Origin: Alphaproteobacteria bacterium | GTDB lineage: Bacteria > Pseudomonadota > Alphaproteobacteria > Sphingomonadales > Kordiimonadaceae | Length of the DNA stretch: 39,577 nt | Direction of reading: 5' to 3' | Assembly (NCBI GenBank): GCA_021774735.1 | Contig: JAJFIS010000010.1 | Location: 1 to 39,577, forward strand | Shown: in pieces, positions 479-39,067 of the stretch | How positions within the stretch are numbered: position 1 is the first letter of the stretch | Layout of the letters: every line of letters starts with the position of its first letter | Position numbers and translations under genes: made by a program | Notes under the pieces: generated by a model | Told to the model about the DNA's origin: nothing | The model's database searches: none | What the model saw: the letters and a program-made list of their open reading frames with translations, nothing else

Positions 479-575
479 CCTCTGATCCCTTTTTGATACC
501 CCTTTTACCACGCCTTGTTACAAAGGCATTTTGCCACCATCCACTTTCAACATTTTTATAAATTCAGGAAATAGC

Positions 576-1184
576 ATGACCATTAGCTATCCATTAATGC
601 TGCCCAGCGCACCGGCAGCACAGAGCTTTCGGCTGTCGATCATCCGCGCTCAGTCCGTTCTGGCGTCGATCAACGGTCGCCAGCAAATTCAACGCCGCCC
701 CGGGGACCACTGGGAAGGGGTTATGACCATGCCCCCCATTAATGATGCCCAAAAGGCGGAATGGGAAGGGACGTTAACAGCGCTTAATGGCATGGTGGGA
801 ACCTTCACCCTGCCGCATCCATCCCCTGCTATGCGCGGTTCAGCGGCGCACGGGGTTGGAGTGGTGCAGGGCGGCGGCCAGCTTGGCAGCATGCTCGCCA
901 CGGCTGGCTGGCCGATCAGCACTGCGGGGTTGTTTAAGCGCGGCGATATCATCCAAGTGGGGAACCGGTTGAAGATTGTGCTGGCTGATGCGGGCAGCAA
1001 CTTAAGCGGCGTCGTTAGCTTGCATGTGGCACCAGAGATTTTTGCGCCGCCCAGTGACCTAACACCCATCGGCATTTTGGCCCCGGCGGGGGAGTTCCGC
1101 TTGAAAGAGCCCAAGGTTGACATTCAAAGCAATGCCAACGGCACCCATTCGCTGTCCTTCGCGGTGACGGAGGTGATGCTATGA
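576..1184 (+). CDS. Phage tail-tip protein (distal tail / lambda gpM position), 202 aa
   Basis: This is a putative structural tail protein of the tip complex. I chose the ATG at 576 because AGGAA lies six bases upstream. An in-frame ATG at 531 adds 15 residues but lacks a ribosome binding site. The product has no signal peptide or membrane segment. Its N-terminal half contains RRPGDHWEGVMTMPPI and a NGMVGTFTLPHP segment, a pattern seen in small phage tail proteins that follow the tape measure gene. The stop overlaps the next start (ATGA at 1181-1184), which implies translational coupling. Identity comes from position and general pattern, and no catalytic motif is present. A family such as DUF2460 or a gpM-like protein is possible, but I could not settle which. 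Confidence 0.65.
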   Translation: MTISYPLMLPSAPAAQSFRLSIIRAQSVLASINGRQQIQRRPGDHWEGVMTMPPINDAQKAEWEGTLTALNGMVGTFTLPHPSPAMRGSAAHGVGVVQGGGQLGSMLATAGWPISTAGLFKRGDIIQVGNRLKIVLADAGSNLSGVVSLHVAPEIFAPPSDLTPIGILAPAGEFRLKEPKVDIQSNANGTHSLSFAVTEVML

Positions 1185-1825
1185 GTATCGACACAGATTT
1201 ACTGAACGCTTTTAAGGCGGGTGAGCTGAGCGTGGCCGCACTGGCGCACTTGGATTTTGACGGCGAGCCAATGTATGTTTGGACCGGCCTGTCGCCCCTA
1301 ACTTGGGATGGAAAATCATGGATGCCGGTTGGCTCACTGGGCAAGGTTTCAGCGCTGGAAAGCACCACAGAGGGGCGTATTTCCCGGCTTAGCCTGACCC
1401 TTGGATCGCTAAAGCAGGATGTTTTTGATGCTACGGGAGAAATGGCCCAGGCCTTCACACTGGCTTATAAGCACCGCTCGGCGCGGCTGTATCTGTGCTC
1501 GGTGGATGAAAACATGGCGCTGATCGGCCAGCCATGGCTGGCTTACGCAGGGCCAATGGCCAAGGTGAATGTGCAAGACAGTAATGACCCTTCGGTTAAG
1601 ATTGAGGTGGAAAGCCGGGAAGCCACCTTCCGCCGCGCCAACCGGCGCTTTCGCACCGATGCAGAACACCGCCTCAACAATCCCACCGACAGTTTTTTCA
1701 GCTTTGTCACCGATGTCACCAACAAGATTGTCTATTGGGGCATGTCCCGGGCTGGTGGCGGCGGTGGTGGCAGCGGCGGTGGGGGCCGAAATGATGAAGA
1801 TGCTCGCGATTTCAAGCTTCGATGA
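1181..1825 (+). CDS. Phage tail / baseplate hub-like protein (lambda gpL position; DUF2163-like), 214 aa
   Basis: The N-terminal region has the pattern 'aHLDFDGEPMYVWTGLSPLTWDGKSWMPVGSLG', where a tail protein describes field-like beta strands (WTG...W.G..w.g.G.lg). The central part reads AGPMAKVNVQDS and then an ESREATFRRANRRFRT segment, typical of tail-hub proteins upstream of the NlpC/P60-like gene in GTA and phiJL001-like phages. The protein ends with a glycine-rich stretch (about residues 189-203) and a charged tail. Both ends overlap neighbours by four bases (ATGA at 1181 and at 1822). The DUF2163-like label is inferred from gene order and pattern and was not checked by profile search. 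Confidence 0.65.
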   Translation: MSIDTDLLNAFKAGELSVAALAHLDFDGEPMYVWTGLSPLTWDGKSWMPVGSLGKVSALESTTEGRISRLSLTLGSLKQDVFDATGEMAQAFTLAYKHRSARLYLCSVDENMALIGQPWLAYAGPMAKVNVQDSNDPSVKIEVESREATFRRANRRFRTDAEHRLNNPTDSFFSFVTDVTNKIVYWGMSRAGGGGGGSGGGGRNDEDARDFKLR

Positions 1826-2220
1826 CCCGCCACAAAGATTGGCAAGAGCGCTTAACTCAAGCGATTGTCGCTCGTGCAAAGGTGCCGTTCCAGTGGGGCG
1901 AGCATGATTGCAGCACGGGGGCTGGGGCGCTAGTGGAGGCCATGACCGGTTTCAACCCTTGGCCGGGGGGCTATGGCTTGCGGGATGCTGCGCGTTTCTC
2001 CGCTGAGATGGAGCCGGTAGCTTTGGGCATCGCGGAGCAGGCGGATTGGCCCCTAGTTGCTTTGCATGAAGCCCAATTGGGTGACCTGGTGTTGGCCTAT
2101 GCAGGGACAAAAGCACGGCCTGCGATGGGTATTTATTTAACGCATAATTTAATTTTTGTTAGCGCGGTTGGTTGGGCTTTTCGCCCCCATGGCTGCGCAA
2201 AAAGGATATGGCATGTCTAA
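1822..2220 (+). CDS. Phage DUF6950 / NlpC-P60-like protein, 132 aa
   Basis: The motif FQWGEHDCSTGAGALVEAMTG (Cys30) matches the 'WG.hDC' box that marks DUF6950 and the related NlpC/P60-like tail peptidases. Such proteins sit between the hub protein and the J fibre and are thought to help the tail cross the cell wall. The usual catalytic histidine of true NlpC/P60 enzymes (H-V-G-I) is not seen. The matching position reads AMGIYL, as in DUF6950, so hydrolase activity is doubtful. The gene starts in an ATGA overlap and its last eight bases overlap the next start at 2213. Confidence 0.7.
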   Translation: MTRHKDWQERLTQAIVARAKVPFQWGEHDCSTGAGALVEAMTGFNPWPGGYGLRDAARFSAEMEPVALGIAEQADWPLVALHEAQLGDLVLAYAGTKARPAMGIYLTHNLIFVSAVGWAFRPHGCAKRIWHV

Positions 2221-5200
2221 AGTTGTAAAAATAATTGCTGGGGCGGTGCTGGTCGCCATTGGGGTCATAGTTCCCGGTGCGCAGTTTTTGGTTCAAATTG
2301 GTGTTGGACTGGCACTTGCTGGAATTGCAGAGGCTTTCGCAGGCACCCCAGCGATGGCGCAGGATCAGGCTGGGCAAAAAGCCCCAGTTACCAACCGTAT
2401 TGATAGTCAAAAGCTACTTTATGGCAGCAACCGTGTTGGGGGTGCGGAAATTTTTGTCGAAGAATATGGTAAGGACAATGAAGATATCGTCATTGCGCGC
2501 GTTGTCGCTGACCATGTGGTAGATGGTTTTGGGGCTTTTCATTTGGGGGATAAGGCTATTAGCTTTGACGCCAGCGGCAACGCTACCACCGCGCCTTACG
2601 CAGGAAAATTATGGCTAAAAACTTATGATGGCAGCCAAGCAATAGCTGATCCTTGGATTATGGCCGCCCACGCCGACGCCGACGCAAGCATGGTTGGTTT
2701 GGGCAAAGCTTATTACGTGATCAAGGCTAAATTCGACCCAGAAGTTTTCCCTTACGGCATTGGCGAACTGCGCCAAACGTCGATCATCGTTAACGGTAAA
2801 AGGGTCTATGACCCCCGGCGGGATGATACAGTGGCGGGCGGGCTAGGACCCCAGCGCATAGCAGATGCAAGCAGTTGGACATATAGCCTGAACCCCGCGC
2901 TTTGCACCTATGACTATTTGCGCGAAATGGAGATAGGTGCGGCAGTGCCCGTGGGCGAAATTGATGTGGATGCCATCATATCAGCCGCAAATATTTGCGA
3001 CGCAGAAGTGATATTAAAAGCGGGCGGCACCCACAAGCGCTATGAGGTCAACGGCGTTATCGATAGTGGCCGCAAGATTCAAGAAAACCTCAAGACAATG
3101 CTCACCGGCATGGTGGGTTGGCATGTTTGGGACGGCGGAAAGATCGGCATTTATGCGGCTGACTATGCAGCACCCACTGTCTTCTTGAGTGAAGATGATA
3201 TTGCCGAGATCAATGCATCCCCCGCGCCTTCGATCAATGAAAGTTTCAACGAGGTCGGTGGTCTGTTTGTGGACCCTGCCCAAGACTTTGAAGCCGTTGA
3301 CTATCCGGTGCGTAAAAACGCCACTTACCTAAGCGAAGATGGGGCTGAAGTGCGGCGGCAAGATATTACCTTCCCGCTCTGTCATGATAATCGCCGGGCC
3401 CAGCGCATGGCGAAAATATTCCTTGAGCGTTCCCGCAGGCCAACGATTAGCTTTCGCGCCAAGCCCGGGGCTTTAGAGGTTAGACCGGGCAGGGTTTTTG
3501 CCCTGAGTTGGGATAATTTTGACTGGGCAGGCAAGCTATTTCGTGCCCGCACCGTCACTGTAGCGAACCTAGAGCCCTTAGAAGTGCAAATTGAAGCACA
3601 GGCTGAGGATGCCGCGATTTATACGTGGGATCCAGTGGTTGACGAACTGGTCTTGAGCGACCCAGCTAACCTTACGCACCACGGTCCCCACCAAACTATT
3701 ACGCCAACCGGATTGTCAGTTGCTCCGGTAATTGATGTGGCTGCGGACGGGGCCAGTCAACCCATTCTTGATGTTTCCTACAGTGATCCGGGCCCCTTGG
3801 TAAGTCGATCACTGATTGACCTTCGCCGAAGTGGGACCGTAAATTGGGAGCAGGGTACCATCGCCAACAGCAATGAAGTGCGGGCAGTTTTGCCGGTTTC
3901 AGCGGGAAACTGGGACGTGCGGCTGCGCCATGTTGGCCGCAATGGGGTGATAGGGCCAGACGCACAAGTATCAGCTATATCAGTAGCTAATTCTAATACC
4001 GCTGGGGATGTGGCTGCCATTGGCGGTATTGATGCATCCATAGTTGTTAGCAATGCTCAAACCGGTTTTGACCTGACGCAAAATAACGGTGTCACGCTTG
4101 ATCAGTCCAGCTTCGGCACTCTTGATATGGCAGACCTTGATGCGACCCGTGCTACCCACCTTGACGGCGTTGCAGTGGGGGCAAACCTCACCACCAACAC
4201 GAACCAGTTAACGGACGGCGCGGGCTTGGGTAATACTGCTCTGTGGTCGGGCGTGACCGGGACAGGCCTTCCTGCCGACAATGCCGATGTAACGATTGAC
4301 CAATTATCCGGCAGCGGGGCTAATTTATGGCATCCGGCATTCTCAAGTGACATGCAGGCATTGCCCGCGAGTGCGCCGTCAGCGGGTACAAATGGTACAG
4401 CTGAATTATGGCAGTTTGATGTGGCGGGGAGGAAAGCACCCTTATTTAGGTTGTTGGCTGCGGCAGCTGATCAATGGCAATATTTAGGCACCAGCACCTC
4501 GGATTATAACGTCAAGCTTTCACCGAATCAAAAGTGGATTATCAGCGCTTGGGTACGCTGTCCCGTCGCGAGTAAAACAGGACAACTATTTGTGAGGACC
4601 AGCACCGCTGGTCAACATTACAATGTCAGCTTCATCACCTCATTATCAGCGGGCGTATGGACTCGCGTTAGTGGCATCATTGATTTATCGGCAGACAACA
4701 GCCCTACATGCATTCTGCGTGTTGATAACGACAGTGTCGATCAGATCATGTATTTCGACGATATGATGCTGGAGCCCATGATAGGCAACAACACCGTTCC
4801 CAGTCCTTATGTGAAACCACAGACCCGGTTGGGGATTGACGTTGACGAGGGGGCCACCCTTGGGGCTACTTGGGGCGCGGATATATTCGGCAGACCAGTT
4901 GAACTTACAGATGGCAGGCTGTCAGCCGGGTTGAACGCTAGCGGTGATCTTCTGCGCAATATTACACAGGCACGGGCTGATGGCTCCAACCTATTTCGCC
5001 GCACAGGCGGTGGGCTTTTCACTGGCGAAACGAATGCTGACAGGACGGCTTCTCACACAAGTGCTGATACTAGCAATGTTGGTGGTACAGCTGCCGTGAC
5101 AGTGCGGGACCGAGCAAATACTGGCTTTAACCTAACCCAAAATAATGCCACTGCCTTGCATGCTTCTAGTTTACCGACTGCAGTACTTGATGGTGCCAGT

Positions 5201-6085
5201 GTACTGCGTCGATCTGGCGGCGGGTTGTTTACCGGCGCTACCAACGCCACGGTGGGGGCCACTTGGGGTAGTAATTTAACCGGCAGGCCAACTGAATTAA
5301 CCGATGGCCGTGTGGCAGCGGGTTTGAGCAATAGCGGTGATATTGTTCGTAATTTGCCCACAGGCATTGGGGTTGACCAAGGAGGCGGCGTGGCACGAGT
5401 TTTGCCCCGTGGCCCGTGGAGCAGCACGGCGCTTGATGGTGTGGCTGTTACTTTCCCCAACCCCTATGCGGGTGTGCCAAATGTGTTCTTTCAAGATGGT
5501 GGCCTGATCAGAGATAGCAGCTTAACGGGCGATACAGCTCAGCGCAAACAGGCACTTAACCTGACAGCAAGTGGTTTTACACCAGATATAAAACTTTATG
5601 AAAAGTCTGGAGCACCCGTGTCGCAGGTAGACAGTAGCGGCCAGACCACCACTGGCACACGAGATATTGAAATGAATAAATCTGCCGCAGAGGCATGGGA
5701 TAATAGATATAGCTTTCAGTATGATGTGCAAATTATCAACACCCCTTTGGGCGGCGGTGAATATGAACCAGGCTGGATCGATGTTGGTATTTATACCAAT
5801 AATGGTGGGGGATGGGTGCAGAGGGCAACTGTTCGCATACATGGTGGCGGCATTGTACCGACGACCACCAAAAGTAACCGCACAACAACTGTTATTGTTA
5901 GTGGGCTCACCAACCACGCCGGGCGTGAATTTGGGGTGAGTGTTGTCGCCAGCATGGCAGGAGGCGCTGTTACAGCCCTTGACAGCGTCAGTTATGAAAC
6001 GGCGTCCGCCCCGCAGGAGGTAAGCGCGACCCCAGCGGGTGTTGGCGGCATTCCATTTTTAGCATTAGAAGGACAAGAAGCATGA
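2213..6085 (+). CDS. Phage tail tip / host-specificity protein J-like fibre, 1290 aa
   Basis: This is the central tail fibre that recognises the host. The ATG at 2213 follows AAAGGA; an in-frame ATG at 2156 lies inside the previous gene. Residues 4-45 are hydrophobic (KIIAGAVLVAIGVI...), as in other J proteins. The middle (about residues 90-510) holds the tip-attachment region, including a NICDAEVILKAGG segment. Residues ~700-865 look like a carbohydrate-binding beta-sandwich (ANLWHPAF..., SAWVRCPV..., IMYFDDMMLEP). Two ~33-residue units recur at about 883-915 and 1014-1046, and FDLTQNN/FNLTQNN blocks occur near 617 and 970. The C-terminal third is probably the variable receptor-binding part. 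The next gene starts in an ATGA overlap. Confidence 0.85.
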   Translation: MSKVVKIIAGAVLVAIGVIVPGAQFLVQIGVGLALAGIAEAFAGTPAMAQDQAGQKAPVTNRIDSQKLLYGSNRVGGAEIFVEEYGKDNEDIVIARVVADHVVDGFGAFHLGDKAISFDASGNATTAPYAGKLWLKTYDGSQAIADPWIMAAHADADASMVGLGKAYYVIKAKFDPEVFPYGIGELRQTSIIVNGKRVYDPRRDDTVAGGLGPQRIADASSWTYSLNPALCTYDYLREMEIGAAVPVGEIDVDAIISAANICDAEVILKAGGTHKRYEVNGVIDSGRKIQENLKTMLTGMVGWHVWDGGKIGIYAADYAAPTVFLSEDDIAEINASPAPSINESFNEVGGLFVDPAQDFEAVDYPVRKNATYLSEDGAEVRRQDITFPLCHDNRRAQRMAKIFLERSRRPTISFRAKPGALEVRPGRVFALSWDNFDWAGKLFRARTVTVANLEPLEVQIEAQAEDAAIYTWDPVVDELVLSDPANLTHHGPHQTITPTGLSVAPVIDVAADGASQPILDVSYSDPGPLVSRSLIDLRRSGTVNWEQGTIANSNEVRAVLPVSAGNWDVRLRHVGRNGVIGPDAQVSAISVANSNTAGDVAAIGGIDASIVVSNAQTGFDLTQNNGVTLDQSSFGTLDMADLDATRATHLDGVAVGANLTTNTNQLTDGAGLGNTALWSGVTGTGLPADNADVTIDQLSGSGANLWHPAFSSDMQALPASAPSAGTNGTAELWQFDVAGRKAPLFRLLAAAADQWQYLGTSTSDYNVKLSPNQKWIISAWVRCPVASKTGQLFVRTSTAGQHYNVSFITSLSAGVWTRVSGIIDLSADNSPTCILRVDNDSVDQIMYFDDMMLEPMIGNNTVPSPYVKPQTRLGIDVDEGATLGATWGADIFGRPVELTDGRLSAGLNASGDLLRNITQARADGSNLFRRTGGGLFTGETNADRTASHTSADTSNVGGTAAVTVRDRANTGFNLTQNNATALHASSLPTAVLDGASVLRRSGGGLFTGATNATVGATWGSNLTGRPTELTDGRVAAGLSNSGDIVRNLPTGIGVDQGGGVARVLPRGPWSSTALDGVAVTFPNPYAGVPNVFFQDGGLIRDSSLTGDTAQRKQALNLTASGFTPDIKLYEKSGAPVSQVDSSGQTTTGTRDIEMNKSAAEAWDNRYSFQYDVQIINTPLGGGEYEPGWIDVGIYTNNGGGWVQRATVRIHGGGIVPTTTKSNRTTTVIVSGLTNHAGREFGVSVVASMAGGAVTALDSVSYETASAPQEVSATPAGVGGIPFLALEGQEA
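4861..4960 (+). repeat. Internal repeat unit A of the fibre gene
   Basis: This unit encodes GATWGADIFGRPVELTDGR followed by LSAGLNASGDLLRN. It matches unit B at 5254-5353 at the protein level, and clearly though imperfectly at the DNA level. It is a tail-fibre repeat produced by internal duplication. Confidence 0.8.
5254..5353 (+). repeat. Internal repeat unit B of the fibre gene
   Basis: This unit encodes GATWGSNLTGRPTELTDGR followed by VAAGLSNSGDIVRN, the second copy of the unit at 4861-4960. A shorter companion motif (GGGLFTGETNA / GGGLFTGATNA) lies after unit A at ~5010-5037 and just before unit B at ~5218-5247, so the duplicated module may be wider than the unit itself. Confidence 0.8.
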
Positions 6086-6396
6086 CAATTTGGGAACCAA
6101 AAACATTGAGCCAAGCGCTCAGCACAGGTTATGAATGGCCGGGCAAACAGCGCCGAGGCCTTGACGGGACTAGCTATTACGGTTGCGGCTGTGGCCGAGT
6201 GGTGCGGGCTTTGGATATGACCGACGTGCGCGGGGTTAATTTGCCGCCTGTCACCGGCGCGGCGGGTGCGGCGATTACGGACGCTGACTTCGTCTGCGAT
6301 GGTTGCACTAGCAGTCTGATGCGCAGCGGCAAAATGCCCAGCAAGGCATGGATGGCAAAGCTCGGCTGTCCTGTAAATATCACCGATAAATATTAA
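6082..6396 (+). CDS. Small Cys-rich phage protein, 104 aa, unknown function
   Basis: I do not recognise the family. The gene starts in an ATGA overlap with the fibre gene, so it is translationally coupled to it. Two cysteine clusters stand out: YGCGCGRVV near residues 33-38 and FVCDGCTSSL near residues 73-76. Together they give a four-cysteine set that could bind zinc or an Fe-S cluster. There is no signal peptide or membrane segment. By position it could be a fibre chaperone or an accessory tail protein, but nothing in the sequence proves that. Confidence 0.6.
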   Translation: MTIWEPKTLSQALSTGYEWPGKQRRGLDGTSYYGCGCGRVVRALDMTDVRGVNLPPVTGAAGAAITDADFVCDGCTSSLMRSGKMPSKAWMAKLGCPVNITDKY

Positions 6397-6408
6397 GGGG
6401 GCACTTAC

Positions 6409-6600
6409 ATGCTCAATCTTGAAGGTAGCACCGTGGCGCAGGCTGCCCTGCTGAAGGCGACGGTCGCGCTCGACCGTATCGAACAACATGAAAAACTATG
6501 CGGGGACCGATGGGCTCTGGTGGTGCGGCTGCTGCTGATGCTGCTGGCGACCATGGTTTCTGTGCTTGGTTTTCTGCTTTATGACCGTTTTTTTATATAA
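6409..6600 (+). CDS. XhlA-like single-TM lysis accessory protein, 63 aa
   Basis: The N-terminal ~35 residues are polar and helix-prone (AQAALLKATVALDRIEQHEK). One transmembrane segment follows at about residues 39-60 (WALVVRLLLMLLATMVSVLGFLLY), and the protein ends just after it. This coiled-coil plus C-terminal anchor layout resembles haemolysin XhlA, which works with a holin. The gene lies nine bases before the holin gene, with AAGG upstream of that start. An antiholin is an alternative. The assignment is inferred from topology and context. Confidence 0.55.
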   Translation: MLNLEGSTVAQAALLKATVALDRIEQHEKLCGDRWALVVRLLLMLLATMVSVLGFLLYDRFFI

Positions 6601-6609
6601 GGAAATAAC

Positions 6610-7008
6610 ATGGCTATTCCTCTCATAAATACACTGCTTGATCTCGTTAAAGGCCCGCTCAATAAGCTGATCCCAGACAAAAATAAACGCATGGAGCTGG
6701 AGCATGAAATTCAAACGGCGGCTTTGCAAGCAGGCCTTGCCCAAATGGAAATTAACAAGCAGGAAGCCGCGCATAGGTCCCTGTTTGTTGCGGGATGGCG
6801 ACCCTTCATTGGCTGGGTCTGTGGTTTGGCGCTGGCATGGCATTTCATGGGGTATGATTTGCTGAATTGGCTGCGGCTGGTGTGGATGCCGGATAGCCCG
6901 CCGCTGCCGGCTTTAAACGGCACGGAAACCTTGATCACGCTGCTGATGAGCTTGCTTGGCCTTGGCGGCCTGCGCACGATCGAAAAGCTCAAGGGCGTCA
7001 GTCGCTGA
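6610..7008 (+). CDS. 3TM-type holin (GTA holin family), 132 aa
   Basis: The N-terminal half is amphipathic (LINTLLDLVKGPLNKLIPDKNKRMELEHEIQ, then a Q/E-rich helix). It is followed by the conserved segment AGWRPFIGWVCGLALAWHF and a second hydrophobic segment ETLITLLMSLLGLGGLRTIEK at the C-terminus. The 'WRP..GW' core followed by 'llGlgg.RtiEK' is characteristic of the GTA/prophage 3TM holin family (PF11351). Holins permeabilise the inner membrane to start lysis. The ATG at 6610 has AAGGAAATA upstream. It is the last gene of the phage block and is followed by a hairpin. Confidence 0.8.
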   Translation: MAIPLINTLLDLVKGPLNKLIPDKNKRMELEHEIQTAALQAGLAQMEINKQEAAHRSLFVAGWRPFIGWVCGLALAWHFMGYDLLNWLRLVWMPDSPPLPALNGTETLITLLMSLLGLGGLRTIEKLKGVSR

Positions 7009-24494: not shown

Positions 24495-25349
24495 TTAAGG
24501 TATTTTCCCTGTGCTGATGGGCAGGTCGTGGCGCATGCCCCATTCGCTCCATGATCCGTCATAAACCGTTACGTCGCTTTTTCCAACCTGTTCTAGGGCA
24601 AGTGCCACCACACAGGCCGTAATGCCGGAGCCACAGCTGAGGATGGCAGGCTTATCTAGATCAAAGTTTTGGCGCGCACAAAGGGCCAATATTTCCTCAG
24701 CTGCCTTCATGGTGCCGTCAGAATTAAGCAGTGCCGGGAAGGGTAAATTCACCGCATTTTTGATGTGACCGGCGCGCATGCCTTCGCGCGGTTCTGGTGC
24801 TGTGCCTTCATAGCGCGGCGCGCCGCGAGCGTCAGCAATTTGGCAAGCTGTGTCATCGGTAGCGGCTAAGGTGCGCCGCCAATCGCAAAAATAACCATCT
24901 TTTAAATTTGCATTATAATCTTTAGCTTCTGGAATGACCTTGTCTGAATTGATGGTGCCATCCGCCGCCTTCCACGCTTGCATGCCGCCATCTAACACCA
25001 TGACATGCTGGTGACCAAAGGCCCTGAACATCCACCATAGCCGAGCTGAGGAATGGACATCACTGTCATCATAAATGACGATGGTATCATCATTGCTAAT
25101 ACCAAGAGCCCCTGCGGCCCCTGCAAATATCTCTGCGCTCGGCAAGGTATGGGATAAGTCACTGTTGGGATCAACAATCGCATCAAGGTTAAAAAATACA
25201 GCATGGGGCAGGTGGCCTTCAGCATGTTCACTTGCTGGGTTTCGGGCACCACCGGGCAGGTGCCAACTGGCATCGATAATTTTGATATGTGGCTCAGCAA
25301 TTATTGTGCTTAAGTCTTGGGCTGATATTAGTGATGGTGATGTTTGCAT
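24495..25349 (-). CDS. sseA: 3-mercaptopyruvate sulfurtransferase (two-rhodanese), 284 aa
   Basis: It transfers sulfur from 3-mercaptopyruvate to thiols or cyanide. There are two rhodanese domains: the N-terminal one with IKIIDASWHLPGG and VIYDDSDVHSSARLWWMFRAFG, and the C-terminal one with the active-site loop CGSGITACV (Cys239), the CG(S/T)G.TA pattern of mercaptopyruvate sulfurtransferases. AGGAG lies seven bases before the ATG. It is the first gene of the sseA-metC-modBC operon. Its promoter and first 12 codons are duplicated at 28862-28974 on the far side of the R-M island. Confidence 0.92.
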   Translation of the reverse strand: MQTSPSLISAQDLSTIIAEPHIKIIDASWHLPGGARNPASEHAEGHLPHAVFFNLDAIVDPNSDLSHTLPSAEIFAGAAGALGISNDDTIVIYDDSDVHSSARLWWMFRAFGHQHVMVLDGGMQAWKAADGTINSDKVIPEAKDYNANLKDGYFCDWRRTLAATDDTACQIADARGAPRYEGTAPEPREGMRAGHIKNAVNLPFPALLNSDGTMKAAEEILALCARQNFDLDKPAILSCGSGITACVVALALEQVGKSDVTVYDGSWSEWGMRHDLPISTGKIP

Positions 25350-25424
25350 TTTCTGTCTCCTAAATCTTTACGGTGAAAGATGGAAGCTAAGACAACATTG
25401 GTCAAGCGATAGTATGTCGCACCA
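25313..25424. repeat. Flanking direct repeat, left copy (sseA promoter and 5' end)
   Basis: These 112 bp run from codon 13 of sseA back through its ribosome binding site and promoter. They match 28864-28974 in the same orientation with about nine mismatches and one single-base gap by hand alignment. A 28-bp run, ATGGAAGCTAAGACAACATT and on to GGTCAAGC, is identical. The two copies enclose the R-M island. Confidence 0.9.
25377..25405 (-). promoter_or_regulatory. Candidate promoter of the sseA-metC-modBC operon
   Basis: On the minus strand TTGACC (25400-25405) and CATCTT (25377-25382) are separated by 17 bases. The -10 match is modest. The same two boxes are preserved in the duplicate copy at 28864-28974, which supports a functional role. 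Confidence 0.45.
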
Positions 25425-25525
25425 CGGGTTGTTGAGGAAGTCCATGGTATTGCTGCAACACTTTCCCTATGAAGCTAGAATAAATACATCTAAGTATGCG
25501 ATAAGGCCTTTTCACTGTGGGGCTT

Positions 25526-25547
25526 TCATGATTTAATGAAATCATGA
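25526..25547. promoter_or_regulatory. Palindromic operator candidate upstream of the RHH gene
   Basis: TCATGATTT (25526-25534) and AAATCATGA (25539-25547) form a 9-bp perfect inverted repeat with a 4-base centre, 34 bases before the RHH start. A second small palindrome, ATTTG-TAT-CAAAT, follows at 25547-25559. Tandem palindromes are typical binding sites of dimeric ribbon-helix-helix repressors. Confidence 0.5.
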
Positions 25548-25557
25548 TTTGTATCAA

Positions 25558-25582
25558 ATCGAATAATACTGGGAGATTCGAT
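25558..25582 (+). promoter_or_regulatory. Inverted repeat enclosing the RHH ribosome binding site and start codon
   Basis: ATCGAAT (25558-25564) pairs with ATTCGAT (25576-25582). The loop holds GGGAG (25571-25575), and the right arm includes the first two bases of the ATG at 25581. In mRNA this could hide the start and tune translation of the RHH gene. Confidence 0.35.
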
Positions 25583-25775
25583 GGTGATTACTGAACCTGA
25601 AGTAACTATTCAGTTAAAAATTCCTGCTTCACTTAAGCGTAAGATACAACAAATTGCACTTGACCGCGATGAAACAATTAAAACATTTATATTAAAGTCA
25701 ATAAAGAAAAATGGTGTCGCAATTCCCGAATCATTAACGGTTGACAGAAGAAAGAAGAGGTTAAAAGATGTCTGA
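25581..25775 (+). CDS. Small ribbon-helix-helix-like DNA-binding protein, 64 aa
   Basis: The N-terminus EVTIQLKIPASLKRKIQQIALDRDETIKTFILKSIKKNG fits a beta-strand plus two-helix CopG/Arc-type fold: the 'v.iqlkiP..l...l...A...g.s...fi..ai...' pattern. The C-terminus is basic (VDRRKKRLKDV). GGGAG lies five bases upstream of the ATG. Its last eight bases overlap the methyltransferase start, so the two are co-translated. It could be the repressor or controller of the R-M operon, a role usually played by helix-turn-helix C proteins. An antitoxin role is an alternative, but no separate toxin is nearby. The fold is inferred from the pattern. Confidence 0.6.
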   Translation: MVITEPEVTIQLKIPASLKRKIQQIALDRDETIKTFILKSIKKNGVAIPESLTVDRRKKRLKDV

Positions 25776-26814
25776 ATCGTCTTTGATTGTAGACCTTTTT
25801 TGTGGTGCGGGAGGGCTAAGTTTTGGTTTTAAAAACCAAGGCTTTGAAGTAAGTGCTGGAATAGATGTAGATGAAAGCTGTAGATACCCTTATGAGGCCA
25901 ATATTGAGGCTCCATTTATCCGCACTGATGTTTCTGAGGTTACTTCTGAAAGGTTATTGGAATTGTTTGACCCTCATAAAATCAAAATTTTAGTTGGTTG
26001 TGCGCCATGTCAGCCATTTTCCAAATATAATCAAAAAAATGATGATCCAAAATGGAAGCTTCTGAAATCATTCGGCAGACTTATTTCCGAAGTAAGACCG
26101 GAAATCGTATCAATGGAAAATGTGCCACAATTGATGAAATTCAGAGATGGTGCTGTTATTAAAGAGTTCATTAACAATCTTTCAGGTGCAGGCTATTATG
26201 TTTCTTTTGATACGTTATTTGCACCTAACTATGGCCTACCTCAAAGCAGGTCTCGACTTGTATTGCTGGCCTCATTACTTGGACCAATTTCATTACCAGC
26301 CCCAACGCATGAAAACCATTACATGACTGTGCGGCAAGCTCTATCTATCCTTCCTCCCTTGAAAGCGGGCATGGTAGATGAAAAAGATAACTTACATCGT
26401 ACAGGAAGTCTCAGCGAATTAAACCTCAAGAGAATTAGGGCTTCTTCGCAAGGTGGGTCATGGCACGATTGGCCTGAAGAATTGGTTGCTGAGTGCCATA
26501 AAAGCGAAACGGGTAAAGGCTATAGATCAGTATATGGCCGTATGAAATGGGATCGCCCATCACCTACCATTACAACTCAATTCTTTGGTTTTGGAAATGG
26601 CCGCTTTGGACATCCCGAGCAAGACCGAGCCCTGTCCCTTCGCGAAGGGGCAATCTTACAAGGGTTTCCACAAGATTATAAATTTGTTCCGGCCGGTGAA
26701 AAAGTTCATTTGACCCGCGTAGGGAAAATGATTGGAAATGCAGTACCCGTAACTCTAGCCAACGCGATCGCTGGTGCGGTGAAATCACATCTGAAGGAAT
26801 ATAAATATGCCTGA
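25768..26814 (+). CDS. C5-cytosine DNA methyltransferase (type II modification), 348 aa
   Basis: It methylates cytosine C5 in a specific DNA site using S-adenosylmethionine. All core motifs are visible: motif I DLFCGAGGLSFGF (residues 9-21), motif IV GCAPCQPFS with catalytic Cys81, motif VI ENVPQL, motif VIII GLPQSRSRLVLLAS, motif IX LREGAILQGFPQDYKF and motif X IGNAVPV. The target-recognition region is short (about residues 215-265), so the site cannot be predicted. It overlaps the RHH gene upstream and the GHKL gene downstream (26807-26814), so three genes form one transcript. It protects host DNA from the partner nuclease. Confidence 0.95.
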   Translation: MSESSLIVDLFCGAGGLSFGFKNQGFEVSAGIDVDESCRYPYEANIEAPFIRTDVSEVTSERLLELFDPHKIKILVGCAPCQPFSKYNQKNDDPKWKLLKSFGRLISEVRPEIVSMENVPQLMKFRDGAVIKEFINNLSGAGYYVSFDTLFAPNYGLPQSRSRLVLLASLLGPISLPAPTHENHYMTVRQALSILPPLKAGMVDEKDNLHRTGSLSELNLKRIRASSQGGSWHDWPEELVAECHKSETGKGYRSVYGRMKWDRPSPTITTQFFGFGNGRFGHPEQDRALSLREGAILQGFPQDYKFVPAGEKVHLTRVGKMIGNAVPVTLANAIAGAVKSHLKEYKYA

Positions 26815-28810
26815 TGGCGACATTAATACTGCTAAGCGTGATCTTGTAATGCAAATTAGCCTGAATGCACTTGAGCATTTGGGTATGAATTTATATAGCA
26901 ATGTGCCCGCTGTTTTATCTGAAATAGTTGCAAATGCATGGGATGCCGATGCAAAAGAGGTAAACGTTAATGTTGATAAGGGCAATAATTCCGTAACCAT
27001 TACCGATAATGGGGTTGGCATGACGAGAGATGAGGTTATCGACCGTTTTCTAATGGTAGGTTTTAAGAGACGTACTTGCATTGGCCATGAAACAGCGCTT
27101 GGTCGTCTTCCTATGGGTCGCAAAGGTATTGGTAAATTGTCGTCCTTTTCTATCGCCCGCAAAATAGATGTGTTCACTGAAAAGGATGGCGAACGAACAG
27201 CTTTCAGGATGGACAGGGGTAAAATCCAAGACCAAATTGAAAGTCCAAATAATGCTATACCCTACAAACCAGATGTAATAACAGACTGGCCCGACGACTT
27301 AAATGGCGGAACAAGGATCGTATTATCTGATCTAACTAAAAATGTTACTGAATTAACATTAAGTGGATTAAGAAAACGTATTGCTCGACGTTTTGCTATC
27401 ATTGGTCCAGAAAACCAATTTGAAGTTCTTGTTAACAACAAAAATATTGGCCCTGAGGATAGAGGCTACCATAAACTCCTTGAGTATGTTTGGACCTATG
27501 ATAACCAAGATGAATTTATAGAACTATGCTCTAATCTTAGTAGAGCCTCAGAAGATCGAACAAGTCACATCAATATCGCCCTTAAAAAGCACAATTTAAC
27601 TTTGAAAGGATGGATAGGAACAGTTTCCAAACCATATCAATTAAAGGATGAAGAAGGTGACAACCTAAATAGGATTGCTGTTTTTATGCGGGGGAAACTT
27701 GCACAAGAGGATGTACTTGATATCTTCGGACAGAGTGAAATTTACGCTGACTATATTGTCGGTGAATTACATTGCGATGAATTGGATTTAGACGACGATG
27801 ATGATATGGCAACAAGTAGTAGACAGTCACTAAAAATTGATGACATTAGATTTCTAGCTTTTAAAGAAACTGCCCTCTCGGAGTTAAGAAACATAGCAAA
27901 TACTTGGAGTGATTGGCGCAGATCAGACGGAGCGAAAATTGCTTTATTGGTTCCTGCAGTATCAGACTGGTTAGATGATTTAAGTGGTGACACTAAGAAA
28001 AAAGCTGAAAGGTGGATTGGTCGTTTGCATGTTATGAGAACCAACGATGAATCTGATAAAAAAGAACTATTGAAGGCTTCAATATTAGCATTTGAAAGTT
28101 ACAGAAGAAAAGATGAGCTTGGTCGCTTAGATATGATATCAGACCAAGGACTTGAGGATATTCTACCTATTTTTCGAAATATCGATGACCTAGAATTAAG
28201 TTATTACGGCCAAATCGTAGAACTTCGTCTTGGCGTAATTAAGAAATTACAAGCGTTAATGAGTGAAAATGTAAAAGAGAAAGTCCTTCAAGAGTATATA
28301 TTTGAACACCTCTGGCTTATCGACCCCTCTTGGGAAAGAGCTAAGGGGACTGAGCATATTGAAACAAAGATTAATACATTTTTAGGTAAGAATACTGATA
28401 AACTCACACAAAAAGAAAAAGATGGCCGAATTGACATTGCCTACAGGACCACGTCAGCAAAGCATATAATTATTGAGCTGAAAAGGATGTCTGTCTCGAC
28501 TCCTGTAGATGATTTAACAAAACAGATTAGGAAATATAGAGATGGTTCACTTAAGATTATTGAACAAAGCTATTATAAAGACTGGCCAATAGAAACAATT
28601 TGTTTGTTAGGCAAGCCCCCTCCTGAATGGAATTTACGCAATGGACCAAAAGACGTGGCCCGTGCATTAGAAGCCGTAAATGCACGAATTGTGTTTTATG
28701 ATCAGCTAATAAATAATGCTCAACAAACTTATGCTGATTACCTCAAAGCTCACATAAAAGTAGATAAATTGTGGGGCGTCTTTAAATCCATTGATGATTT
28801 CTCAATTTAA
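26807..28810 (+). CDS. GHKL (MORC/MutL-type) ATPase fused to a PD-(D/E)XK nuclease domain, 667 aa
   Basis: The N-terminal domain is a GHKL ATPase: LSEIVANAWDADA (Glu39, Asn43), ITDNGVGMT (Asp67 to Gly71) and GRKGIGKLS (104-112). This order and spacing is that of Hsp90, MutL and MORC proteins. The middle is long and acidic (ELDLDDDDDMATSS near residue 328) and includes an S5-fold-like region. The C-terminus has D543 in DGRIDIAY followed by IIIELKR (Glu557, Lys559), the PD-(D/E)XK nuclease signature, preceded by YIFEHLWLIDPSWER. The architecture and its methyltransferase partner match the MORC-type R-M ATPases reported for BbrUII and HgiDII. It is probably the restriction component. ATP-driven nuclease action is inferred. 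Confidence 0.8.
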   Translation: MPDGDINTAKRDLVMQISLNALEHLGMNLYSNVPAVLSEIVANAWDADAKEVNVNVDKGNNSVTITDNGVGMTRDEVIDRFLMVGFKRRTCIGHETALGRLPMGRKGIGKLSSFSIARKIDVFTEKDGERTAFRMDRGKIQDQIESPNNAIPYKPDVITDWPDDLNGGTRIVLSDLTKNVTELTLSGLRKRIARRFAIIGPENQFEVLVNNKNIGPEDRGYHKLLEYVWTYDNQDEFIELCSNLSRASEDRTSHINIALKKHNLTLKGWIGTVSKPYQLKDEEGDNLNRIAVFMRGKLAQEDVLDIFGQSEIYADYIVGELHCDELDLDDDDDMATSSRQSLKIDDIRFLAFKETALSELRNIANTWSDWRRSDGAKIALLVPAVSDWLDDLSGDTKKKAERWIGRLHVMRTNDESDKKELLKASILAFESYRRKDELGRLDMISDQGLEDILPIFRNIDDLELSYYGQIVELRLGVIKKLQALMSENVKEKVLQEYIFEHLWLIDPSWERAKGTEHIETKINTFLGKNTDKLTQKEKDGRIDIAYRTTSAKHIIIELKRMSVSTPVDDLTKQIRKYRDGSLKIIEQSYYKDWPIETICLLGKPPPEWNLRNGPKDVARALEAVNARIVFYDQLINNAQQTYADYLKAHIKVDKLWGVFKSIDDFSI

Positions 28811-28861
28811 CGATTTTGTAAAACATTGAAACTTCCTACAAGTGCTTAGCAGAAATAGTTG

Positions 28862-28900
28862 CTAGTCTTGGGCTGATATTAAGGATGGTGTTGTTTGCAT
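28862..28900 (-). pseudogene. Orphan 12-codon sseA 5' fragment
   Basis: On the minus strand the ATG at 28900 reads MQTTPSLISAQD and then TAG (28862-28864), against MQTSPSLISAQDLS in sseA. The ribosome binding site (GGAG) and the promoter boxes are kept in the copy. It is a duplicated end left by the insertion of the island and makes no useful protein. Confidence 0.8.
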
Positions 28901-28974
28901 TTTCGGTCTCCAAACTTTTATGGTGGAAGATGGAAGCTAAGACAACATTGGTCAAGCAATAGTATGTCGCACCA
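28864..28974. repeat. Flanking direct repeat, right copy
   Basis: These 111 bp match 25313-25424 in the same orientation at about 91% identity by hand alignment. The copy runs from the AGTCTTG end to ACCA at 28974, after which the sequence is unrelated to the left copy. Confidence 0.9.
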
Positions 28975-29029: not shown

Positions 29030-29377
29030 TTAGTTTAATGTTTGCCGTGCTGCATGTTGTCCGTTTTTAGCTTCAACAAACAACTGGGACACAAGCGGGT
29101 GATTAATGGTGTCGGCAGTATCACTGAAAAGCAGATTTTCTTCCGCCACATAAGTGCTGTGGGTCTCGCCGTCGACCAAAATATGATACCAAGGGCGGTC
29201 CTTGTTTGGACGAGATTTAGCCATCATATCATACCATTCTGATGACTGGCTAAAAGTGGCATCGACATCAAAAATAATACCACGATAGCCGAACTTTTTA
29301 TGTTCGACAACTTGCCCCATGCTAAAGCGGGCGACAGTTGTGCGGTCGAGTTTATGTATCATGTTTTCATATGCCAT
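29030..29377 (-). CDS. hspQ: Heat shock protein HspQ (YccV family), 115 aa
   Basis: HspQ is a small hemimethylated-DNA-binding/heat-shock protein linked to Lon-mediated proteolysis in enterobacteria. The pattern FSMGQVVEHKKFGYRGIIFDVDATFSQSSEW, then NKDRPWYHILVDGETHSTYVAEENL, is diagnostic. I chose the ATG at 29377 because AGGAG lies seven bases upstream; a start at 29413 would add 12 residues without support. A GC-rich hairpin sits just upstream of the ribosome binding site. The gene ends 55 bases beyond the right repeat of the R-M island. Its likely ancestral neighbour on that side was sseA. Confidence 0.9.
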   Translation of the reverse strand: MAYENMIHKLDRTTVARFSMGQVVEHKKFGYRGIIFDVDATFSQSSEWYDMMAKSRPNKDRPWYHILVDGETHSTYVAEENLLFSDTADTINHPLVSQLFVEAKNGQHAARQTLN

Positions 29378-29390
29378 TTTGCATCTCCTA

Positions 29391-29407
29391 TGCCGGTCAA
29401 TCCGGCA
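29391..29407 (-). promoter_or_regulatory. Leader hairpin before the hspQ ribosome binding site
   Basis: TGCCGG and CCGGCA (29391-29396 / 29402-29407) form a 6-bp GC-rich stem with a 5-base loop, two bases before AGGAG on the minus strand. It may affect translation of hspQ. Confidence 0.3.
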
Positions 29408-29559
29408 GGGCATTCTTTTGGCCCTAGACCTTATTCTAAAGCTTTCCTTTTAATAAAAGCTGAACAAAACCACTTTTCTTGTTAACACTTTGTTAGGTAT
29501 AGAAAGCTTTTCCGTAGCCGAAAAAGCGGTTGTTTCCATGGGTTATGGGTGAATATGTT

Positions 29560-38991: not shown

Positions 38992-39067
38992 GGTCGGTTA
39001 GCTCAGTTGGTAGAGCGTTTCGTTGACATCGAAGAGGTCGCTGGTTCGAGCCCAGTACCGACCACCA
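38992..39067 (+). tRNA. tRNA-Val (anticodon GAC)
   Basis: The sequence folds as a cloverleaf of 76 nt. The acceptor stem is GGTCGGT / ACCGACC. The D arm GCTCAGTTGGTAGAGC follows. The anticodon stem TTTCG / CGAAG encloses loop TTGACAT, giving anticodon GAC. The T arm is GCTGG-TTCGAGC-CCAGT. The discriminator A and the CCA end (39065-39067) are encoded. Confidence 0.97.

What the first reader, a model, noticed from the sequence alone, without database searches (positions are those of the whole stretch)
25313..28974. R-M island enclosed by ~112-bp direct repeats of the sseA promoter and 5' end
Hand alignment of 25313-25424 and 28864-28974 shows same-orientation copies with about nine mismatches and one gap. 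Both contain the ribosome binding site, promoter boxes and first 12 codons of sseA. The AT-rich block between them holds only three co-transcribed genes and no integrase or transposase. This points to insertion at the sseA-hspQ junction by recombination, perhaps with a donor segment from a related strain, since the copies differ by ~9%. The repeats also give RecA a route to delete the whole system.
Basis: partly seen in the sequence, partly recalled or inferred. Interest (0 to 1): 0.75.

Follow-up and report, generated by a model that had tools for sequence, protein, structure and literature searches.

The report
Restriction-modification insert flanked by duplication
A foreign three-gene DNA-defence (restriction-modification) unit has inserted just upstream of a housekeeping gene, leaving a second, truncated copy of that gene's promoter and first 12 codons behind; this looks like an example of a kind of insertion already described for such systems.

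Summary
In detail: 25313-25424 and 28864-28974 are same-orientation copies (9 mismatches, 1 gap; 91%), far above chance (135 bits against at most 22.6 in 185 control pairs), found only twice in this genome. Both carry the sseA promoter region, ribosome-binding site and codons 1-12; the right copy stops straight after codon 12. Between them lies an AT-rich operon: a 64-aa gene, a C5 cytosine methyltransferase and a GHKL restriction enzyme of the BbrUII/HgiDII family (probable target GTCGAC).

Family-level comparison supports insertion. In all 24 other family genomes with an SseA match, hspQ-sseA-metC is kept without R-M genes there, 22 with a gap of about 56-335 bp and none with a long second sseA start. 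Taking out the island and one repeat leaves 129 bp. No second genome of the genus is held, so the strain-level empty site, donor and age are untested.

Best reading: insertion of an R-M unit with long target duplication, a known pattern, perhaps made by one-sided homologous recombination. It is not general for this R-M family: the nearest relative's flanking repeat is a dispersed element.

The parts
24495..25349 (-). sseA, 3-mercaptopyruvate sulfurtransferase, intact, 284 aa
   Evidence: NF008557 260.9 bits, cut-off 250; ORF
25313..25424 (-). left repeat: sseA codons 1-12, RBS and promoter region, joined to the intact gene
25526..25550 (+). TCATGATTT repeat/palindrome upstream of the operon, possible operator
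   Evidence: repeat seen; role inferred
25581..25775 (+). 64-aa ORF, first gene of the operon, possible small DNA-binding regulator
   Evidence: 44% and 38% identical to the first genes of two related operons; no Pfam match; weak VapB-type match, 16.7 bits against a cut-off of 60; AlphaFold model poor, mean pLDDT 63.5
25768..26814 (+). C5 cytosine DNA methyltransferase, 348 aa
   Evidence: PF00145 E 1.9e-59, TIGR00675 133.5 bits, PADLOC MTase_II
26807..28810 (+). GHKL ATPase restriction endonuclease, BbrUII/HgiDII family, 667 aa
   Evidence: NF050001 786.7 bits, cut-off 550; PADLOC REase_II; HATPase_c_3
28864..28974 (-). right repeat: truncated sseA start, 12 codons then TAG, plus promoter region, on the hspQ side
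29030..29413 (-). hspQ (YccV-like), native upstream neighbour of sseA
   Evidence: TIGR02097 102.6 bits; adjacency conserved

Best explanation
A horizontally acquired three-gene type II R-M operon inserted into the ancestral hspQ-sseA junction, and the event left about 112 bp in two copies, covering the sseA promoter region, RBS and first 12 codons. The left copy keeps sseA intact with its promoter. The right copy is a stub (12 codons, then stop) whose promoter points into the 3' end of the restriction gene. The route I think most likely (inferred, about 0.45 on its own) is one-sided homologous recombination with DNA from a relative in which the R-M unit already lay upstream of sseA: a homologous crossover in sseA or further left, and an illegitimate joint at codon 12 on the right (homology-facilitated illegitimate recombination). 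Products that keep a working sseA would be favoured, and loss of an R-M unit can kill the cell (recalled), so the arrangement persists. Shown: the repeat, the gene content, the R-M-free junction across the family. Inferred: route, donor, fitness arguments. The confidence given is for insertion with duplication, not for the route; the first three rivals are other routes to the same event.
For: Repeat confirmed and confined to this locus. Junction without R-M genes in the stretch examined in 24 of 24 other family genomes with SseA; about 56-335 bp in 22 of 24; no long second sseA start (census of 29 family genomes, SseA in 25 including this one). AT-rich block. The R-M family is patchy: matches at E <= 1e-90 in 3 of 296 order genomes (listed among 13 at E <= 1e-20, most of those partial), 3 of 385 class genomes and 2 of 398 phylum genomes, each count including this genome; relatives on a conjugative Rhizobium plasmid and in an E. 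coli phage. Precedent: R-M systems inserting with target duplications of the order of 100 bp (passages of PMC3874152, PMC1643837, PMC4978471).
Against: No other genome of the genus is held, so a single-copy empty site in a close relative was not seen; family SseA proteins are about 37-50% identical and none of the 58 relatives searched matches within the 112 bp itself. No significant similarity at the right joint (P 0.11). Five related R-M loci with usable flanks show no comparable target duplication. The one-sided route is reported as several orders of magnitude rarer than ordinary homologous recombination (passage of PMC5361080) and as of low efficiency in E. coli conjugation (title and abstract start of PMC3240628 in a listing). 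ComEC and DprA are present, but both searches also ring in all 10 bacteria among the 14 controls, so they say little on uptake.
Confidence: 0.8

Rival explanations
1. Other route, Campbell-type integration: a circular DNA carrying the R-M operon plus 112 bp of sseA 5' sequence from a relative integrated by one crossover in the shared 112 bp, giving direct repeats on both sides.
For: The geometry of the repeats fits; a 31-bp identical block is available for a crossover; related R-M units occur on plasmids.
Against: Needs a circle that already carried an sseA 5' fragment; no replication or transfer gene was identified between the repeats.
Confidence: 0.2
2. Other route, exact duplication at insertion (staggered cut or replicative target duplication) followed by decay of the right copy, so that 9% measures age and not donor distance.
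For: The right copy has no evident selected role; the substitution pattern does not reject neutrality.
Against: No transposase found in the unit and no inverted repeat pair between its flanks in the window; 112 bp is far longer than usual transposon duplications (general knowledge).
Confidence: 0.2
3. Other route, site-specific integration: the 112 bp is an attachment site including a gene 5' end, and the integrase was lost or acts in trans.
For: A gene start is restored by a diverged copy, as in integrative elements that replace a gene end (recalled). The genome has three PF00589 recombinase genes on other contigs, one of 365 aa.
Against: No integrase in the island; no related R-M unit at sseA in 24 family genomes; other R-M loci lack such flanks.
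Confidence: 0.07
4. Assembly artefact or chance repeat.
For: Draft genome in 51 contigs.
Against: Copies differ by 9%, both outer flanks keep family synteny, completeness 100 and contamination 0.02, chance control negative. Read coverage was not available.
Confidence: 0.02

Closest known systems
Insertion of R-M systems with long target duplication (Nobusato et al. 2000; Furuta et al. 2010; described from Helicobacter pylori)
   Same: R-M unit unlinked to a known mobile element, with target duplications of the order of 100 bp (passage of PMC3874152; passages of PMC1643837).
   Different: Alphaproteobacterium (by its relatives); copies differ by 9%; repeat spans a promoter region and gene start; no close empty-site genome was available. 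Neither primary paper was read: Furuta is not held, Nobusato was not looked up and is known through citing passages.
Homology-facilitated illegitimate recombination with remnant genes (Vibrio cholerae T6SS immunity arrays, PMC5361080)
   Same: Proposed there: one homologous anchor, one illegitimate end, remnant of the displaced native sequence kept beside the insert (passages).
   Different: Here the remnant is a 12-codon gene start and the donor is unknown.
BbrUII/HgiDII-type R-M systems; paraMORC3 GHKL proteins
   Same: REase scores 786.7 bits against NF050001; a 39% identical phage protein is annotated ParaMORC3; paraMORC3 is described with a C-terminal nuclease domain (passages of PMC2292703). 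M.HgiDII recognises GTCGAC (passage of PMC5867850).
   Different: This operon has a 64-aa first gene, shared with two alphaproteobacterial relatives and not found by tblastn in the other four loci compared.

Membership tests
R-M insertion with long target duplication | R-M genes enclosed by same-orientation repeats of about 100 bp | tested here: met
   112 bp, 91%; R-M genes
R-M insertion with long target duplication | Repeat is target sequence, present once in genomes without the insert | tested here: inconclusive
   Family genomes have one sseA start and no R-M genes there (24 of 24 with SseA) but are too distant to show the 112-bp sequence itself; the genus has 1 genome held
R-M insertion with long target duplication | No transposase or integrase in the unit | tested here: met
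   Three genes, none so identified
BbrUII/HgiDII-type restriction enzyme | Full-length match over the curated cut-off | tested here: met
   NF050001, residues 14-662 of 667, 786.7 bits, cut-off 550
BbrUII/HgiDII-type restriction enzyme | Acts on GTCGAC | tested here: inconclusive
   GTCGAC: 9 seen, 28.5 expected in 269,794 bases sampled here; but also low in G005 (6 of 13.4 expected), which gave no REase match; not low in G008 (7 of 5.7 expected). Activity itself not testable here
Homology-facilitated illegitimate recombination product | One homologous and one illegitimate joint, shown against donor and recipient | not testable with these tools
   No donor or same-genus recipient held
Integrase-driven genomic island | Integrase gene in the island | tested here: not met
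   None of the three genes; three PF00589 matches lie on other contigs

The most novel reading that the evidence does not exclude
The unit is a mobile, integrase-less R-M cassette that carries a copy of its target gene's promoter and start as a homology handle, so that insertion leaves the target gene intact, while the leftover promoter makes antisense RNA against the restriction gene and tempers it.
Probability: 0.05. Interest if true: 0.6.

Novelty: new member of a known kind. Interest (0 to 1): 0.3.

Why it matters
It is a clear case, in an alphaproteobacterial genome, of R-M genes lying in a chromosome between copies of about 100 bp of target while the neighbouring gene stays whole. Whether Furuta 2010 already lists such cases outside Helicobacter was not checked (not held). 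The diverged copies make it a natural test of donor origin against duplication and decay, once a same-genus genome appears.

Tried and rejected
The nearest R-M relative found in the order sample (L134, REase 66%) also lies between 116-bp direct repeats (73%). This looked like a second case, but the sequence matches five places in that genome, the flanking pair included (only 5 of 61 first-look candidates were scored), and other genomes of that genus: 17 of 151 have a match at E <= 0.001, itself included, three of the others strong (E <= 2e-13) and the rest short and weak. I take it for a dispersed repeat and dropped it as support.

Flank test in other R-M loci: L135, L136, L146 and L147 had no comparable repeat; L135 had weak matches (47 bp at 64% within 1 kb; up to 89 bp at 64% within 5 kb) and L136 two weak ones of 31 and 41 bp within 5 kb; L137 had only 138 bp of right flank and is no real test; L120's region is L136; the G857 locus (L169) was not tested.

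Extension of the repeat beyond codon 12 (81% over 162 bp) was rejected: not above shuffles (P 0.11). Constraint in the two copies as proof of a donor: not significant. GTCGAC avoidance as a clock: inconclusive. Structure of the 64-aa protein: model too poor; PDB sequence search, best E 0.081, gave no credible match. A 29-base core of the repeat in viral contigs: 0 matches. No tRNA or Rfam match lies at the island; the only one in the window is a tRNA-Val at 38992. The last literature search was seen only as a listing and is not used.

Full report
Observation. BLASTN of the left copy against the window's own genome (2.78 Mb, 51 contigs) finds at E <= 0.001 only itself and 28864-28974, at 91%, E 1.4e-38. 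The alignments show 9 mismatches and 1 gap over 112 columns (my count). Among 185 equally spaced pairs of 300-bp stretches elsewhere in the window the best score was 22.6 bits, against 135 here. Outside these limits similarity is not above shuffles (P 0.11 on the sseA side, 0.35 on the other). Each copy holds codons 1-12 of sseA, the sequence GGAGAC before the ATG, and a 31-bp identical block with a TTGACC element that I read as the promoter by eye; the automatic promoter scan lists none inside either repeat. In the right copy the reading frame stops at codon 13 (TAG), so it can only give a 12-residue peptide.

Gene content. The block between the repeats has three genes with 8-bp overlaps on the plus strand: a 64-aa ORF (25581-25775), a C5 cytosine methyltransferase (25768-26814; PF00145 E 1.9e-59) and a 667-aa GHKL protein (26807-28810) that matches the curated BbrUII/HgiDII restriction enzyme model nearly end to end (786.7 bits, cut-off 550). 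M.HgiDII is reported to recognise GTCGAC (passage of PMC5867850), so that target is likely, not shown. The 64-aa gene is also the first gene of two related alphaproteobacterial operons (44% and 38%), which argues that it belongs to the system; its fold was not resolved (mean pLDDT 63.5). None of the three was identified as an integrase or transposase. The 1-kb windows over the block are 37-43% G+C, the other windows 44-58%.

Is it an insertion? The genus of this genome has one member in the collection, so no close empty site could be read. All 29 held genomes of the family were searched; SseA was found in 25 including this one. In the 24 others hspQ lies upstream of sseA on the same strand, followed by metC, and no R-M gene of this kind lies in the stretch examined. 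In 22 of 24 the hspQ-sseA gap is about 56-335 bp. The other two (G021, about 1,657 bp; G022, about 965 bp) carry unrelated ORFs. No long second copy of the sseA start was found; weak matches of 24-26 bp were listed in G003 and G010. Removing the island and one repeat here leaves 129 bp, within that range (from the coordinates). At DNA level the relatives are too distant to show the 112 bp itself: of 59 genomes searched, this one included, 4 others matched, each by one piece of 22-28 bp lying in the sseA body. So insertion at an ancestral junction is well supported, but strain-level proof is missing.

Where the R-M unit comes from. Close relatives of the restriction protein are scattered: at E <= 1e-90 in 3 of 296 genomes sampled from the order, 3 of 385 from the class and 2 of 398 from the phylum, each count including this genome; the order search listed 13 genomes at E <= 1e-20, most of them partial matches. 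A 63% relative is on a conjugative Rhizobium acidisoli plasmid with TniQ, TniB and Mu-type transposase genes a few kilobases away and a very-short-patch-repair nuclease gene downstream. A 39% relative lies in an E. coli phage whose gene names are those of P2-like phages, annotated ParaMORC3. This is the patchy pattern of a mobile system.

Is the repeat a general feature of this R-M family? Not in what I examined. Of six other loci, only L134 had a long direct repeat, and that sequence has further copies in its host genome and genus. L135, L136, L146 and L147 had none comparable; L137 could not be tested because the contig ends 138 bp after the operon.

Mechanism. The repeat ends at codon 12 on one side and about 75 bp upstream of the ATG on the other. 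If DNA from a relative carrying the R-M unit upstream of its own sseA recombined at sseA by homology and joined illegitimately at codon 12 of the resident gene, the product is what is seen, with the left copy from the donor and the right copy the resident remnant. Such one-sided events are described for three naturally competent species (passage of PMC2884548) and proposed for remnant gene arrays (passages of PMC5361080), where they are also called several orders of magnitude rarer than ordinary homologous recombination. A single crossover with a circle gives the same geometry, as does an exact duplication with later decay. The nine differences do not decide between them: in the 12 codons 2 changes are silent and 1 is Ser to Thr, where 73 of 108 possible changes are missense and 8 nonsense; and an identical run of 31 bp or more arises in 36% of random placements. 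Deletion through the repeats by RecA is possible in principle, and loss of an R-M unit is expected to be harmful (recalled), but neither was tested.

Comparison with what is known. R-M systems inserting with long, variable target duplications of the order of 100 bp have been in print since 2000, from Helicobacter pylori (passages of PMC3874152, PMC1643837, PMC4978471 and PMC3154945; also PMC3031569). The two primary papers were not read. This locus works like that pattern and meets the features testable here; the close empty site could not be tested. I rate it a new member of a known kind, of modest interest.

Noticed in passing
window 531-7008: Phage or gene-transfer-agent-like tail module at the contig's left end: DUF6950 protein, 1290-aa protein with a Phage-tail_3 match, and a GTA_holin_3TM protein; two further ORFs there gave no Pfam match.
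   Followed up: partly
L134 7486-7601 and 11566-11681: Repeat of up to 116 bp with at least three more matches in the same genome and strong matches in three other genomes of its genus; it flanks a related R-M unit that is followed by a 144-aa ORF read by eye as Vsr-like.
   Followed up: partly
L138 4104-5050 and L139 3421-5068: Two family genomes carry other cargo at the same hspQ-sseA junction: a 184-aa ORF in one, a 476-aa repeat-rich ORF (RTX-like by eye) in the other.
   Followed up: no
window 25526-25550: TCATGATTT twice with 16-base spacing and palindromic overlap, just upstream of the 64-aa gene; possible operator.
   Followed up: no
window plus L173-L187 (269,794 bases of this genome): CCGCGG (9 seen, 87 expected), CGGCCG (15, 70) and GGCGCC (35, 110) are strongly under-represented, the first two more so than GTCGAC (9, 28.5), which may point to other past or present R-M systems.
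   Followed up: no
L172 241-1338: A 365-aa tyrosine recombinase (PF00589) near one end of contig C43 of this genome, beside an ORF that looks by eye like a response regulator.
   Followed up: no
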